NCBI GenBank assembly: GCA_934402375.1
Contig: CAKRUB010000043.1
Location: 1-20,226, forward strand
DNA from: an uncultured Acetatifactor sp.
Lineage (GTDB): Bacteria > Bacillota > Clostridia > Lachnospirales > Lachnospiraceae
Direction of reading: 5' to 3'
DNA length: 20,226 bases
Shown here: piece after piece, positions 11,683 to 16,366 of the stretch
Layout of the letters: each line of letters starts with the position of its first letter
How positions within the stretch are numbered: position 1 is the first letter of the stretch
Notes under the pieces: generated by a model
What the model was told of the DNA's origin: nothing
Databases searched by the model: none
Seen by the model: the letters and a program-made list of their open reading frames with translations, nothing else
Translations under genes and position numbers: made by a program

Positions 11683-12765
11683 ATGGAAGACAGACAGACG
11701 AAGTACAGTGACATTGTTCACTACCTGAAAAACTTTATAGATGAGGAACAGCTGAAGCCGGGGGATAAGCTGCCGTCGGAGAACGAGCTCACGGAGCGGC
11801 TCGGCGTCAGCAGGCAGACAATCCGTAAGGCAATCGGAATACTGGAGGAACAGGGGACGGTGCGAAGGGTCAAGGGCAGCGGGACTTATGTGGGCTTTGA
11901 CCGCAGGGAAAATCTGGAAAAGCGGAACCGGATTGCGGTGCTGACGACGTATGTGGACAGCTATATTTTTCCGAAGACCATACAGGGGATTGAGAGCGCG
12001 CTTTTCGAGAGAGGGTATTCGGTACAGATTTCCTTTACAAATAATACGCTGGAGCGGGAGAAGAACGTGCTGACTGACCTCATCAGCCGTGACGATGTTG
12101 CCGGAATCATTGTCGAGGGAACGAAGAGCGGGCTTCCGAATCCGAATCTTGCCCTGTACAGGCAGCTCATGAACCGGAGGATTCCCATCCTGTTCATCAA
12201 CACCTTCTACCCGGAGCTTGCGGTTCCGCATGTCTCCCTGAATGATGTGGAGGCGGCGCAAAAGGCGGTCAATTATCTGATTGCAAGAGGGCACAGGAAC
12301 ATCGGGGCGATTCTCAAGCTGGATGACGGACAGGGACGGCTGCGCTATCTTGGGTACTTAAAGGCGATGGAGGCAGCGGGACTTGCGGTCACGGACTCAC
12401 GCATGGTCTGGATCGACACGGACGAATCGAAGCAGTTGAATTTCTGCCGGGATAAGATACTGAACCGGGTGGAGGAGTGCAGCGCTCTTTTCTGCTATAA
12501 CGATCAGATCGCCTTTCAGCTGATAAGGATGTTGCAGGAGAAGGGGATACGGGTGCCGGAGGATGTGTCGGTGATCAGTATTGACGACTCTGACCTTGCG
12601 CTCCACAGCGAGGTGCCGATCACATCCCTGCCCCACCCGAAGGAAAAGCTGGGCGCCAGAGCCGCAGAGGTGCTGCTCGATATGATTGATGGGAAGAAGG
12701 GGGAGCATACCGTGGAGTTTGAAACCCGCGTGGTGGAGCGGCAGTCAGTTACGGATTGGGCATGA
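11683..12765 (+). CDS. araR: AraR-type arabinose-responsive repressor (GntR-HTH/LacI-sensor)
   Basis: A 360-aa hybrid regulator. Residues ~7-72 are a GntR winged HTH (KYSDIVHYLKNFI, LKPGDKLPSENELTERLGVSRQTIRKAI, VRRVKGSGTYV). Residues ~85-358 are a LacI/periplasmic-binding-type sensor (NRIAVLTTYVDSYIFPKTIQGIE, ARGHRNIG, DDSDLALHSEVPITSLPHPKEKLG). This architecture is that of AraR, which binds L-arabinose and leaves its operators. It is followed by araA, araB and araD on the same strand, which supports the assignment. Homology starts six residues after this ATG, so no later start is possible, yet no Shine-Dalgarno precedes it. Candidate sites lie upstream of itself, araA and araB. Confidence 0.9.
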   Translation: MEDRQTKYSDIVHYLKNFIDEEQLKPGDKLPSENELTERLGVSRQTIRKAIGILEEQGTVRRVKGSGTYVGFDRRENLEKRNRIAVLTTYVDSYIFPKTIQGIESALFERGYSVQISFTNNTLEREKNVLTDLISRDDVAGIIVEGTKSGLPNPNLALYRQLMNRRIPILFINTFYPELAVPHVSLNDVEAAQKAVNYLIARGHRNIGAILKLDDGQGRLRYLGYLKAMEAAGLAVTDSRMVWIDTDESKQLNFCRDKILNRVEECSALFCYNDQIAFQLIRMLQEKGIRVPEDVSVISIDDSDLALHSEVPITSLPHPKEKLGARAAEVLLDMIDGKKGEHTVEFETRVVERQSVTDWA

Positions 12766-12771
12766 TTCTGA

Positions 12772-12920
12772 AAGTGACGTTGCACAGAATGCACAGACCA
12801 CCGCAGGCACGCTTTCGCTACCTTCCGCACGCAGCGGTGCGTAAGATGTCAAAGTACGCCATCTAAGCACCGGCGGCTCCAGAGTGCGCTGCTTGTGGTC
12901 AGGTGCATTTTGCGCAACTG
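12772..12920. repeat. Structured inverted-repeat element, copy 1 (between araR and araA)
   Basis: Positions 12772-12908 are identical over 137 bases to 14517-14653, and the last 12 bases are similar, ending in CAACTG. The ends form an imperfect terminal inverted repeat: the left begins GTTGCACAGAATGCAC and the right, reverse-complemented, begins GTTGCGCAAAATGCAC; both continue to GACCAC. Inside, GCAG/CTGC, CGGTGC/GCACCG and AGATG/CATCT can pair in nested order, so the whole element could fold into one long arm. It carries no credible gene. It is either a MITE-like or REP-like mobile repeat or a transcribed structured element in the araA leader. Confidence 0.85.
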
Positions 12921-12932
12921 TAGCCTGAAACC

Positions 12933-12945
12933 TACAAGATTTGTA
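12933..12945. promoter_or_regulatory. Candidate AraR site upstream of araA
   Basis: TACAA-GAT-TTGTA is a 5-bp-arm inverted repeat 37 bp before the araA start. The half-sites match those upstream of araR but in the opposite arrangement, so this is tentative. TTGTAA/TAGTAT with a 15-bp spacer nearby is only a weak promoter candidate. Confidence 0.3.
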
Positions 12946-12981
12946 AATTCCTAAAAATAAATAGTATGGAGGAAAGAAAAG

Positions 12982-14478
12982 ATGAAGGAAATGAAGAAGT
13001 ATCAGTTTTGGTTCTGCACTGGTTCGCAGGATCTGTACGGAGAGGAGTGCCTGAAAAAGGTGGCTGCGCATTCCAGAGAGATGGTGGAGGGGCTGAATGC
13101 GTGCGGCGCGCTCCCCTATGAGCTGGTCTGGAAGCCGACATTGATCGATCAGGCGTCGATCCGCCGTACCTTTAACGAGGCGAACAACGACGAGAATTGC
13201 GCAGGTGTGATTACCTGGATGCACACCTTCTCTCCGGCAAAGATGTGGATCATCGGTCTTCAGGAGTACCACAAGCCGCTATGTCATTTACATACCCAGT
13301 ATAATGAAGGGATTCCCTATGACACCATCGACATGGATTTCATGAATGAGAATCAGTCTGCACACGGCGACAGAGAGTACGGACATATCGTGACCCGCAT
13401 GGGTATCGAACGCAAGGTCATTGTCGGACACTGGCAGAATCCGCAGGTGGCGGAAAAGCTGGCTGACTGGATGCGTACAGCTGTAGGCGTTATGGAGTCC
13501 TCCCACATCCGCGTTTGCCGTATCGGTGACAACATGAACAATGTTGCCGTCACAGAAGGCGACAAGGTGGAAGCACAGATGAAGTTCGGCTGGGAGATCG
13601 ACCATTACAACGTCAACGATGCGGTGGAGTATGTTGACGCTGTCTCCAAGGGGGATGTGGACGCTCTGGTCGAGGAATATTACAGCAGGTATGAGATTCT
13701 TCTCGAGGGGAGAGACCCGGAGGAATTTAAGAAGCATGTGGCAGTTCAGGCACAGATCGAGATCGGACTTGAGAAATTCCTTGAAGCCGGAAATTATCAT
13801 GCGCTGGTTGACCACTTCGGAATGCTGGGCGGATTAAAGCAGCTGCCGGGTCTTGCCATCCAGAGGCTGATGGAGAAGGGCTACGGCTTCGGTGCGGAGG
13901 GCGACTGGAAGACGGCAGCAATGGTTCGCCTGATGAAGATTATGACGCAGGGAAAGAAGGATGCAAAGGGAACCTCCTTTATGGAGGATTACACCTATAA
14001 TTTCGTTCCCGGCAAGGAGGGAATTTTGCAGGCGCATATGCTGGAGGTCTGCCCGACGATAGCGGACGGCCCTGTCAGCATCAAGGTACAGCCCCTGTCC
14101 ATGGGCAACAGGGAGGATCCCGCGCGTCTGGTATTTACCAGCAAGACCGGTCCGGCGGTTGCAACCTCGCTTGTTGACATGGGAAATCATTTCCGTCTGC
14201 TGATCAATGCGGTGGATTGCAAGAAGTGTGATAAGCCGATGCCGAAGCTTCCGGTGGCAACAGCCTTCTGGACACCTCAGCCTTCGCTTGCGGTGGGCGC
14301 AGAGGCGTGGATTCTCGCGGGCGGCGCACACCACACGGCATTCTCCTATGATCTGAGCGTGCAGCAGATGGTGGATTGGGCGGACGCAATGGGGATTGAG
14401 AGTATTGTTATCGATAAGGATACAACGATTCCGGCGCTGAAGAATGAGTTGAAGTGGAATTCGGTTTTTTATAGATAA
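12982..14478 (+). CDS. araA: L-arabinose isomerase
   Basis: A 498-aa protein, full length for AraA (E. coli 500). It converts L-arabinose to L-ribulose in the cytoplasm with Mn2+. The catalytic/metal residues known from E. coli AraA (E306, E333, H350, H450) are all recognisable in context: GDWKTAAMVRLMKIM, SFMEDYTYNF, QAHMLEVCPTI and HHTAFSYD. The N-terminus YQFWFCTGSQDLYGEE is the standard opening. GGAGG lies about 10 nt before the ATG; a second ATG at 12991 would remove three residues. It is the first structural gene of the arabinose block and is flanked on both sides by identical 137-bp repeats. Confidence 0.97.
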   Translation: MKEMKKYQFWFCTGSQDLYGEECLKKVAAHSREMVEGLNACGALPYELVWKPTLIDQASIRRTFNEANNDENCAGVITWMHTFSPAKMWIIGLQEYHKPLCHLHTQYNEGIPYDTIDMDFMNENQSAHGDREYGHIVTRMGIERKVIVGHWQNPQVAEKLADWMRTAVGVMESSHIRVCRIGDNMNNVAVTEGDKVEAQMKFGWEIDHYNVNDAVEYVDAVSKGDVDALVEEYYSRYEILLEGRDPEEFKKHVAVQAQIEIGLEKFLEAGNYHALVDHFGMLGGLKQLPGLAIQRLMEKGYGFGAEGDWKTAAMVRLMKIMTQGKKDAKGTSFMEDYTYNFVPGKEGILQAHMLEVCPTIADGPVSIKVQPLSMGNREDPARLVFTSKTGPAVATSLVDMGNHFRLLINAVDCKKCDKPMPKLPVATAFWTPQPSLAVGAEAWILAGGAHHTAFSYDLSVQQMVDWADAMGIESIVIDKDTTIPALKNELKWNSVFYR

Positions 14479-14516
14479 AAGCAAAGCGAGATAAAAGCGA
14501 AACGGAGGGTTTCGGC

Positions 14517-14665
14517 AAGTGACGTTGCACAGAATGCACAGACCACCGCAGGCACGCTTTCGCTACCTTCCGCACGCAGCGGTGCGTAAGATGTCAAAGT
14601 ACGCCATCTAAGCACCGGCGGCTCCAGAGTGCGCTGCTTGTGGTCAGGTGCATCCTGTACAACTG
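14517..14665. repeat. Structured inverted-repeat element, copy 2 (between araA and araB)
   Basis: A direct repeat of copy 1, 1745 bp downstream. It is identical over 14517-14653; the terminal bases differ (CCTGTACAACTG against TTTGCGCAACTG). Same orientation, same predicted fold. The changed end creates part of an inverted repeat TACAAC-T-GTTGTA at 14658-14670 that resembles AraR half-sites. No obvious target-site duplication is visible at either copy. Confidence 0.85.
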
Positions 14666-14670
14666 TTGTA
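14658..14670. promoter_or_regulatory. Candidate AraR site upstream of araB
   Basis: TACAAC-T-GTTGTA is a perfect 6-bp-arm inverted repeat at the junction of repeat copy 2 and unique DNA, 97 bp before the araB start. Its half-sites match those of the araR upstream palindrome. No convincing -35/-10 pair was found next to it. Confidence 0.35.
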
Positions 14671-14767
14671 TGGAATGCATGGATTTCGTAGCGTAATTAT
14701 TCCGGATAAATATGTAAAATAAATTGATAAGCTGGATAAATAGATAAAAATAAGAGGAGGATGTGAG

Positions 14768-16366
14768 ATGACAGAGGAAAGAAAGGTTGCGATCAGGGAG
14801 GGAAAGACGGCGCTGGGAATCGAATTCGGTTCCACAAGAATCAAGGCGGTGCTGATCGACGAGAGCCACAACCCGGTCGCTATGGGAACGCATGACTGGG
14901 AGAACCGTCTTGAGAACAATATCTGGACCTACAGTCTGGAGGACATCTGGAACGGGTTGCAGGGCTGCTATCGCAGTCTGGCGGAGGATGTCAGCGCGAA
15001 GTACGGAGAGAAGCTGACGAAGATCGGAAGTCTGGGTTTCTCCGGCATGATGCACGGCTACATGGCATTTGACGCGGCGGGCGAACTGCTGGTTCCGTTC
15101 CGCACATGGCGCAACACCATGACGGAGGAGGCGTGCAAGGCGCTGACACCGCTCTTCCAATTCAATATTCCGCAGAGATGGAGCATCGCCCACCTCTATC
15201 AGGCGATTCTCTCCGGGGAGAAGCATGTCGGTGACATTACCTTCTTCACGACGCTTGCGGGCTATATTCACTGGAAGCTCTCCGGAGAAAAGGTGCTCGG
15301 CATCGGCGAGGCATCCGGCATGTTCCCGATTGATTCCACCGCGCGCGATTATGACAGGAAGATGATTGAACAGTTTGATGAGCTGATTGCGCCGAAGGGC
15401 TATGGCTGGAAGCTGGAGGAAATTCTGCCGAAGGTGCTCTGCGCGGGAGAAAATGCGGGAGCGCTGACCGAGGAGGGAGCGAAGCAGCTGGACCCGACGG
15501 GAACCCTGCAGGCAGGGGTGCCGATGTGTCCGCCCGAGGGAGACGCAGGAACCGGCATGGTTGCCACGAACAGCGTCAGAGTGCGCACGGGCAATATTTC
15601 CGCAGGAACCTCCATCTTCTCCATGGTTGTCACGGAGAAGGCGCTTGAAAAGGTACATGAGGAGATCGACATGGTGACGACTCCCGACGGAAATCCGGTT
15701 GCAATGGTGCACTGCAATAACTGCACCTCCGACCTGAATGCGTGGGTGAATCTTTTCGATGAGTTTGCAGGAAAATTCGGCATGAAGCTCGACAAGAACG
15801 AGCTGTACGGAACGCTTTACCGCGAGGCGCTGGCGGCGGACACGGACTGCGGCGGGCTCATGGCATACAACTATTTCTCGGGAGAGCCCGTGACGGGTCT
15901 GAACGAGGGAAGACCGATGTTTGTCCGCACACCCGACGCGAAATTCTCTCTGGCAAACTTCATGAGAAGCCACCTTTACAGCGCTATGGCGACGCTGAAG
16001 ATCGGCAATGACATCCTTCTGAAGGAGGAGCATGTCAAGGTGGATTCCCTGATGGGACACGGCGGACTGTTCAAGACGCCTGTAGTCGGACAGCAGCTCA
16101 TGGCGGCGGCATTTGATTCTCCTGTGACAGTTATGGACACTGCGAGCGAGGGCGGCGCATGGGGAATGGCGGTTCTGGCGGCATTTATGACGGAAAGAGC
16201 GGACGGTGAGACCTTACCTGACTACCTCTCTGACAAGATCTTTGCCGGACAGACGGGAACGACCATCGCACCTAAGGCGGAGGATGTTGCAGGCTTTGAT
16301 GCCTTTGTTGAGAAATATAAGAGCACTCTTCCTGCGGAGAAGGCAGCAGTTGAGGGCTTGAGATAA
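14768..16366 (+). CDS. araB: FGGY-family kinase, probable L-ribulokinase
   Basis: A 532-aa sugar kinase of the FGGY family. N-terminal ATP/phosphate loop [15 protein letters not shown], central [13 protein letters not shown]-terminal signature region [18 protein letters not shown] and adenosine-binding [16 protein letters not shown]. Placed between araA and araD, it most likely phosphorylates L-ribulose to L-ribulose-5-phosphate. It is shorter than E. coli AraB (566 aa), and such clostridial members are often labelled only as FGGY kinases or xylulokinase-like, so the gene name rests on context. RBS GAGGAGG lies about 8 nt before the ATG. It follows araA after 289 bp holding repeat copy 2, and precedes araD by 29 bp. 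Confidence 0.83.

What the first reader, a model, noticed from the sequence alone, without database searches (positions are those of the whole stretch)
12772..14665. Two identical 137-bp structured repeats flanking araA
Copies at 12772-12908 and 14517-14653 are base-for-base identical while flanking DNA differs. Each has imperfect ~23-bp terminal inverted repeats and nested internal pairing, with no gene inside. This looks like a non-autonomous mobile repeat (MITE/REP-like) or a new structured RNA family. Perfect identity implies recent duplication, gene conversion or selection on the fold.
Basis: seen in the sequence. Interest (0 to 1): 0.7.

Follow-up and report, generated by a model that had tools for sequence, protein, structure and literature searches.

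The report
Mobile fold-back repeat of gut bacteria
The two identical repeats beside the arabinose gene araA belong to a large, apparently undescribed family of short mobile DNA elements that fold into a conserved hairpin shape and are scattered through many gut bacteria of the family Lachnospiraceae, often just behind the ends of genes.

Summary
In detail: two copies, identical over 137 bp, in the araR-araA and araA-araB gaps. They belong to a large family. A covariance model built from 24 copies matches 125 of 299 sampled Lachnospiraceae genomes, with up to 48 matches per genome. Rfam has no family overlapping it, and nine paper searches did not turn it up.

In one genome it is a ~210-bp MITE with TAGGTAATTGCGAAAC ends and 8-13-bp target duplications (18 of 27 copies). 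The same ends flank a ~1.8-kb IS1182-like transposon. The five closest relatives of the host lack both window copies. Against this, the window copies themselves show no such ends or duplication.

The core is conserved: loops stay fixed while nearly all helices covary. In one genome 33 copies have mostly unrelated but well-paired outer stems. Pairing is almost purely Watson-Crick, unlike lysine riboswitches in the same genomes, which hints at DNA-level maintenance. But a mini-hairpin reads GNRA on the minus strand in 172 of 191 copies, which hints at RNA or single-stranded DNA of that strand. Copies prefer one orientation just behind stop codons (103 against 29).

Best reading: a MITE superfamily with a selected, structured core whose biochemical role is unknown.

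The parts
12777..12924 (+). Element copy 1 in the araR-araA gap (identical block 12772-12908)
   Evidence: Model R1 match, 140 bits; identity with copy 2
14522..14669 (+). Element copy 2 in the araA-araB gap (identical block 14517-14653)
   Evidence: Model R1 match, 138.4 bits; identity with copy 1
12779..12801 (.). Copy 1, 5' arm of outer stem P1
   Evidence: Read; paired
12895..12918 (.). Copy 1, 3' arm of outer stem P1 (holds all four right-hand differences between the copies)
14524..14546 (.). Copy 2, 5' arm of outer stem P1
   Evidence: Read
14640..14663 (.). Copy 2, 3' arm of outer stem P1
   Evidence: Read
12811..12818 (-). Copy 1 mini-hairpin, loop GAAA when read on the minus strand
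   Evidence: Loop is GNRA on the minus strand in 172 of 191 copies
14556..14563 (-). Copy 2 mini-hairpin, loop GAAA when read on the minus strand
   Evidence: As for copy 1
11683..12765 (+). araR-like regulator, gene upstream of copy 1
   Evidence: Reading frame; homologues; name given from the operon context, recalled
12982..14478 (+). araA, between the two copies
   Evidence: Reading frame; tblastn order in relatives; name from the finding
14768..16366 (+). araB-like kinase, gene downstream of copy 2
   Evidence: Reading frame; tblastn order in relatives; name recalled

Best explanation
The two repeats are members of a Lachnospiraceae superfamily of non-autonomous fold-back elements (MITE type) with a conserved, structured, non-coding core. 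SHOWN: many copies, conserved loops with covarying helices, transposon ends with target duplications in one lineage, a ~1.8-kb IS1182-like transposon with the same ends, and empty orthologous gaps in the nearest relatives. INFERRED: that transposase moves the element in trans by its ends; the core is not needed for movement, because core-less derivatives keep ends and duplications. The window's copies are recent gains, by two insertions or by one insertion and a copy into the next gap. The core is kept by selection as a folded single strand, most likely the minus strand, as RNA or single-stranded DNA. Copies are retained best just behind gene ends in one orientation. As copies age both arms change together, probably helped by template switching in replication, so old copies keep well-paired but private stems.
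For: Copies: 125 of 299 family genomes; 5-48 matches in eight genomes scored more deeply. Structure: 41 of 47 pairs with a two-sided change, covariation 0.511 against 0.18 shuffled and 0.11-0.14 slid. Mobility: duplications of 8-13 bp in 18 of 27 G201 copies, 0 of 702 mismatched flank pairs; transposon with the same ends; core-less derivatives. Site: element in 0 of 24 araR-araA gaps and 1 of 23 araA-araB gaps of relatives, that one with unrelated arms. Placement: 103 plus against 29 minus orientation within 80 nt of a stop codon, 39 against 36 on the start side. Private stems: 33 G038 copies, P1 arms 35% alike between copies, 94% paired within copies.
Against: The window copies show neither TAGG..CCTA ends nor a duplication. 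Nine of 27 G201 copies have no repeat longer than 4 bp. The IS1182-like protein was not found in G201, G164 or G107, where the ends are common (by eye one G164 contig ends in the transposon's left end). G303 and G008 copies have other outer sequences, so one transposase does not explain all. Watson-Crick-only pairing and the GNRA loop point to different carriers, DNA and RNA. Gene calls were crude and copies were the best-scoring ones.
Confidence: 0.74

Rival explanations
1. A structured RNA family first and foremost (3'-UTR element or small RNA), with transposition an accident of a few lineages; each copy is host-functional and its arms differ by compensatory drift.
For: Strong covariation with fixed loops; GNRA loop on the minus strand in 172 of 191 copies with a covarying 2-bp stem; strand-specific placement behind stop codons.
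Against: Aligned core pairs hold 50 G-T and 62 A-C of 4599 cells (one non-pair position left out), where lysine riboswitches of the same genomes hold about 143 G-U and 9 A-C of 880 (riboswitch tally by hand). Folded separately, G-U is 2.8% (plus) and 6.9% (minus) against 16.9%. The GNRA strand is mostly antisense to the gene just upstream. Target duplications and empty sites show movement.
Confidence: 0.2
2. The pairing is not selected at all: template switching at quasi-palindromes keeps the arms of ageing MITE copies complementary, and the covariation is a mutational product.
For: Watson-Crick-only pairs with no G-T over A-C excess in P1 (105 against 131 of 3906 cells); private perfect stems; template switching is reported to create and repair stems (PMC8794818, abstract).
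Against: Loops are conserved across copies whose stems are saturated, and placement is strand-specific; neither follows from a mutational process. In G201 P1 mismatches (77 cells) outnumber two-sided changes (13).
Confidence: 0.15
3. A REP/REPIN-type element moved by a Y1 (RAYT) transposase.
For: Palindromic, extragenic, often in oppositely oriented pairs (21 of 22 neighbouring pairs); compensatory hairpin changes are also described for REPINs (PMC3116915, passages).
Against: Y1_Tnp occurs in 4 of 12 element-bearing and 4 of 8 element-free genomes; the element is ~150-210 bp with TIRs and 8-13-bp target duplications.
Confidence: 0.04
4. An intrinsic transcription terminator, or an element that lives in terminators.
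For: Place behind stop codons and between convergent genes; a few copies are followed by T runs (for example L114, L349).
Against: In the 68 of 189 copies with a strong outer stem, the 8 nt after the 3' arm hold 2.72 T on average against 2.59 just inside; 16% have 5 or more T. The window copies lie between co-directional ara genes without a T run.
Confidence: 0.06

Closest known systems
Bacterial MITEs such as ERIC, Correia elements and QMITE2 (review PMC10969869, passages seen)
   Same: Short, non-coding, terminal inverted repeats, target duplications, intergenic, stable folds; QMITE2 is reported mainly in 3' untranslated regions
   Different: Here one core is conserved across a bacterial family with changing ends, and old copies have private, still paired stems; no sequence relation was tested
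REPINs / REP sequences (PMC3116915, passages seen)
   Same: Extragenic palindromes, paired copies in opposite orientation, compensatory hairpin changes
   Different: No association with Y1 transposases; much longer, with target duplications of 8-13 bp
TwoAYGGAY RNA (Rfam RF01731)
   Same: A long variable outer stem with conserved inner hairpins; one copy lies ~360 bp from an element in L248
   Different: Different consensus; no Rfam family overlaps the element in the stretches scanned
IS1182 family insertion sequences
   Same: The transposon with the same ends encodes a protein whose best NCBIfam hit is IS1182 and has DUF772
   Different: Far below the IS1182 cut-off; the element itself carries no transposase and its core was not seen in the transposon

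Membership tests
MITE (superfamily) | Short, non-coding, many copies | tested here: met
   ~150-210 bp; 5-48 matches in eight genomes
MITE (superfamily) | Terminal inverted repeats | tested here: met
   G201 and some other genomes; not in G193, G283 or G200 with this pattern
MITE (superfamily) | Target-site duplications | tested here: met
   18 of 27 G201 copies, control 0 of 702
MITE (superfamily) | Autonomous partner with the same ends | tested here: met
   L297, L300, G283, plasmid pCY360, Roseburia plasmid
MITE (the window's own two copies) | Ends and target duplication | tested here: not met
   None seen in the flanks; mobility rests on empty sites in relatives
Structured RNA family | Covarying helices with conserved loops | tested here: met
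Structured RNA family | G-U wobble trace of RNA pairing | tested here: not met
Structured RNA family | Transcript | not testable with these tools
   No expression data
Any Rfam 15 family | Match above gathering score | tested here: not met
   relaxed
REP/RAYT | Y1 transposase in the same genome | tested here: not met
   4 of 12 element-bearing genomes
Intrinsic terminator | T run after the stem | tested here: not met
IS1182 (the partner) | NCBIfam NF033551 above cut-off | tested here: not met
   68-69 bits against 270; called IS1182-like only

The most novel reading that the evidence does not exclude
A new kind of bacterial repeat in which a conserved, branched, GNRA-capped core acts as a selected nucleic-acid device at gene ends, while each copy keeps its own well-paired, private inverted-repeat arms, renewed at the DNA level by template switching instead of by slow compensatory drift: a mobile element turned gene-end element that writes its own stems.
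Probability: 0.25. Interest if true: 0.82.

Novelty: new variant of a known kind. Interest (0 to 1): 0.66.

Why it matters
The family is present in about two fifths of the 299 Lachnospiraceae genomes sampled, a major group of gut bacteria, with tens of copies in several. It has strong covariation and a non-random place behind genes, yet no Rfam match, and nine paper searches did not find it. It offers a natural system for two questions: how mobile repeats come to carry structured cores, and how hairpin stems stay paired while their sequence changes completely. Its Watson-Crick-only covariation is also a warning that covariation alone does not prove an RNA.

Tried and rejected
Viral origin: 15-mer patterns in IMG/VR gave only short matches, at most 19 bp by blastn, and the model finds nothing in the 10 contigs. 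The one 'Bacteriophage sp.' record (MT839578) reads like a bacterial chromosome contig and carries one copy.

Plasmid copies: blastn with the window element found one chance match in a pyruvate carboxylase gene, and with a G164 copy none.

A PF01609 transposase as partner: none in G201, G164 or G107; 10 hits in 4 other genomes, none with the pair of ends. The partner was then found by its ends.

Terminator reading: not supported. RAYT reading: not supported. Strand choice by folding energy: the minus strand folds better in 171 of 191 copies, but the stabilisation over shuffles is equal (-12.57 plus, -12.86 minus). Whether old copies keep their sites in congeners of G038 could not be tested, since that genus holds one genome. 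A scan of 11 ara loci for control RNAs found none, so lysine riboswitches were used.

Papers: searches found no description of the family. Supplementary tables could not be read, so one of the 3161 candidates of PMC8040213 (passages seen) may overlap it. Weinberg 2017 is not held.

Full report
OBSERVATION. The repeat finder gives one 165-bp family at 12766-12930 and 14511-14675, 94% identical. A base-by-base check shows identity over 12772-12908 against 14517-14653; the next differences are 12771 and 12769 on the left and 12909, 12910, 12913 and 12914 on the right. The right-hand four lie in the 3' arm of the inverted repeat; by eye each copy has two departures from a perfect stem. The fold beats dinucleotide shuffles on both strands. 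No genome is held for the window, so relatives were used. The nearest relatives of the araR-like protein are Lachnospiraceae, some named Acetatifactor.

FAMILY. Blastn of the 165 bp found related cores in 3 of 13 near-relative genomes, and of a 106-bp core stretch in 28 of 299 genomes of the family of G003. I aligned 24 copies (A1), took the RNAalifold core fold, added the outer stem by hand and built covariance model R1. R1 matches 125 of 299 family genomes at E 0.001 or better; at most 10 candidates per genome were scored and stricter filters applied, so counts there are floors. With up to 150 candidates scored, eight genomes chosen for having copies hold 5, 8, 32, 43, 48, 20, 15 and 17 matches. 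The one with 32 is Lachnospiraceae bacterium GAM79 and the one with 17 a MAG named Acetatifactor muris. At class level 11 of 391 genomes match at E 1e-4; eight of the 11 were also in the family sample, and the family of the other three is not told. The family thus looks confined, or nearly so, to Lachnospiraceae. No Rfam match overlaps the element in the stretches scanned.

ANATOMY. From outside in: end repeats in some lineages; an outer stem P1 of about 20 bp; a small internal loop; P2 (GCAGG/CCTGC); a 2-bp mini-hairpin; P3 with a conserved bulge; P4 with a conserved loop. On A1, 41 of 47 pairs have a two-sided change in at least one copy and 86% of cells pair, against 33.5-45.4% when partners are slid. 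The covariation score is 0.511 against 0.18 in shuffles (0 of 500 as high). The core fold came from A1 itself, so the slid control flatters it, and shuffles ignore relatedness. In G038 the aligned cores show fixed loops with changing stems; 33 copies have 5' P1 arms 35% alike between copies and 94% Watson-Crick within copies, the lowest copy 67%. By contrast G201 arms are 93% alike and 88% paired, G008 66% and 88%; G193 gave no value.

MOBILITY. In G201 copies are mostly 200-211 bp with ends like TAGGTAATTGCGAAAC..GTTTCGCAATTACCTA. Of 27 copies with both ends, 18 have direct repeats of 8-13 bp, against 0 of 702 mismatched flank pairs with 7 or more; nine have 4 bp or less. The end pattern occurs 58, 28, 13 and 20 times in G201, G164, G107 and G144, once in G119, and not in G193, G283 or G200. 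By eye, L202 (124 bp) and L214 (63 bp) keep ends and direct repeats without the core, and L201 has a scar of about 20 bp between repeats of about 12 bp. A scan of viral contigs for the end found 6 loci; L297 and L300 have both ends about 1.8 kb apart around a 485- or 507-aa frame. The protein has Pfam DUF772; its best NCBIfam hit is IS1182 at 68-69 bits against a cut-off of 270. It was found in 5 of 17 genomes, closely only in G283 (70% identity) and as fragments in G038, and not in G201, G164 or G107. The G283 copy has matching ends and, by eye, a 12-bp duplication. Plasmid pCY360 of Butyrivibrio proteoclasticus B316 has a 1766-bp copy with a 14-bp duplication; a Roseburia sp. 831b plasmid has a 1752-bp copy, with no duplication seen. 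G303 and G008 copies have other outer sequences, so more than one transposase may be involved.

THE WINDOW SITE. Of 45 araR relatives, 24 have a measurable araR-araA gap and 23 an araA-araB gap. R1 finds no element in the 24 and one in the 23: L068, whose arms are unrelated to the window's. Five relatives at 82-86% identity have araA-araB gaps of 36-46 bp against 289 in the window; their araR-araA gaps are 95-107 bp in three and 234-247 bp in two, the latter filled with other GC-rich repeats that R1 does not match. Both window copies are therefore gains in the host's lineage. I cannot tell two insertions from one insertion plus a copy.

RNA OR DNA. (1) Core pairs are almost purely Watson-Crick. 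Over 191 copies, leaving out one position that does not behave as a pair, 4599 cells hold 50 G-T and 62 A-C; with it, 4786 cells hold 131 and 63. P1 holds 105 G-T and 131 A-C of 3906. Twenty lysine riboswitches, one from each of 20 genomes (19 of them in the copy analysis by name or by family survey; all 20 had matches, or, for G008), fold with 190 G-U of 1124 pairs; the elements fold with 279 of 9953 on the plus and 722 of 10394 on the minus strand. In the aligned riboswitches I tally by hand about 143 G-U and 9 A-C of 880 cells. (2) The mini-hairpin loop reads GNRA on the minus strand in 172 of 191 copies and on the plus strand in none; its stem is GC/GC in 134, GT/AC in 32 and AC/GT in 10. 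That points to the minus strand, as RNA or single-stranded DNA. (3) Folding energy does not decide. In the younger G201 copies, core cells with a two-sided change (68) exceed mismatched cells (45), but in P1 mismatches dominate (77 against 13); cells are not independent events. Template switching can make and repair stems (PMC8794818, abstract and opening) but does not explain fixed loops.

POSITION. Gene calls were simple (open frames of at least 80 aa, longest first) and copies are best-scoring ones from chosen genomes. The matches gave 203 rows; 4 opposite-strand shadows and 8 duplicates were dropped. Of 191, 103 lie within 80 nt behind a stop codon in plus orientation and 29 in minus (p 6.5e-11); on the start-codon side 39 and 36. 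Of 22 neighbouring pairs closer than 400 bp, 21 are convergent in plus orientation, one tandem, none divergent. By genome the excess points the same way in all 12 groups but is significant alone only in G038, 20 to 0 (limit 120 nt for G201, 80 elsewhere). I infer retention by selection more than insertion preference. The GNRA strand is then usually antisense to the gene just upstream.

WHAT IT IS NOT. No T run follows the strong outer stems. Y1 transposases occur in 4 of 12 element-bearing and 4 of 8 element-free genomes. It was not found on plasmids or in the viral contigs searched with the model.

LITERATURE. Nine searches listed no paper that describes this family. Passages of PMC10969869, PMC2864571, PMC12306157, PMC8040213 and PMC3116915 were seen and the abstract and opening of PMC8794818. 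Supplementary tables were not open to me.

VERDICT. 'MITE' is well supported for the superfamily and inferred for the window's copies. What makes it more than another MITE is the family-wide structured core, the private stems of old copies and the strand-specific place behind genes.

Noticed in passing
L248:2035-2196 (G055): A TwoAYGGAY RNA (RF01731, 72.8 bits) lies ~360 bp from an element copy; it too has a long variable outer stem.
   Followed up: no
L068:8503-8653: A relative has an element with unrelated arms in the same araA-araB gap, about 48 nt behind araA as in the window.
   Followed up: partly
L057:6490-6735 and L058:7085-7316: The araR-araA gap of two Acetatifactor-like MAGs is filled by GC-rich repeats of about 46 bp that model R1 does not match.
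   Followed up: no
L276, L277 (G303): Element copies are enclosed by a different inverted repeat, GGACAGNCCCAAATTGCACA, also seen as GGGGACAGTCCC repeats nearby.
   Followed up: no
L429:857-885 (plasmid pCY360): The IS1182-like element is preceded by the end of a second one with the same 14-bp sequence between them, as if two insertions used one target.
   Followed up: no
MT839578.1 (L134): A GenBank 'Bacteriophage sp.' record has housekeeping-like frames and one element copy; it looks like a mislabelled bacterial contig.
   Followed up: partly
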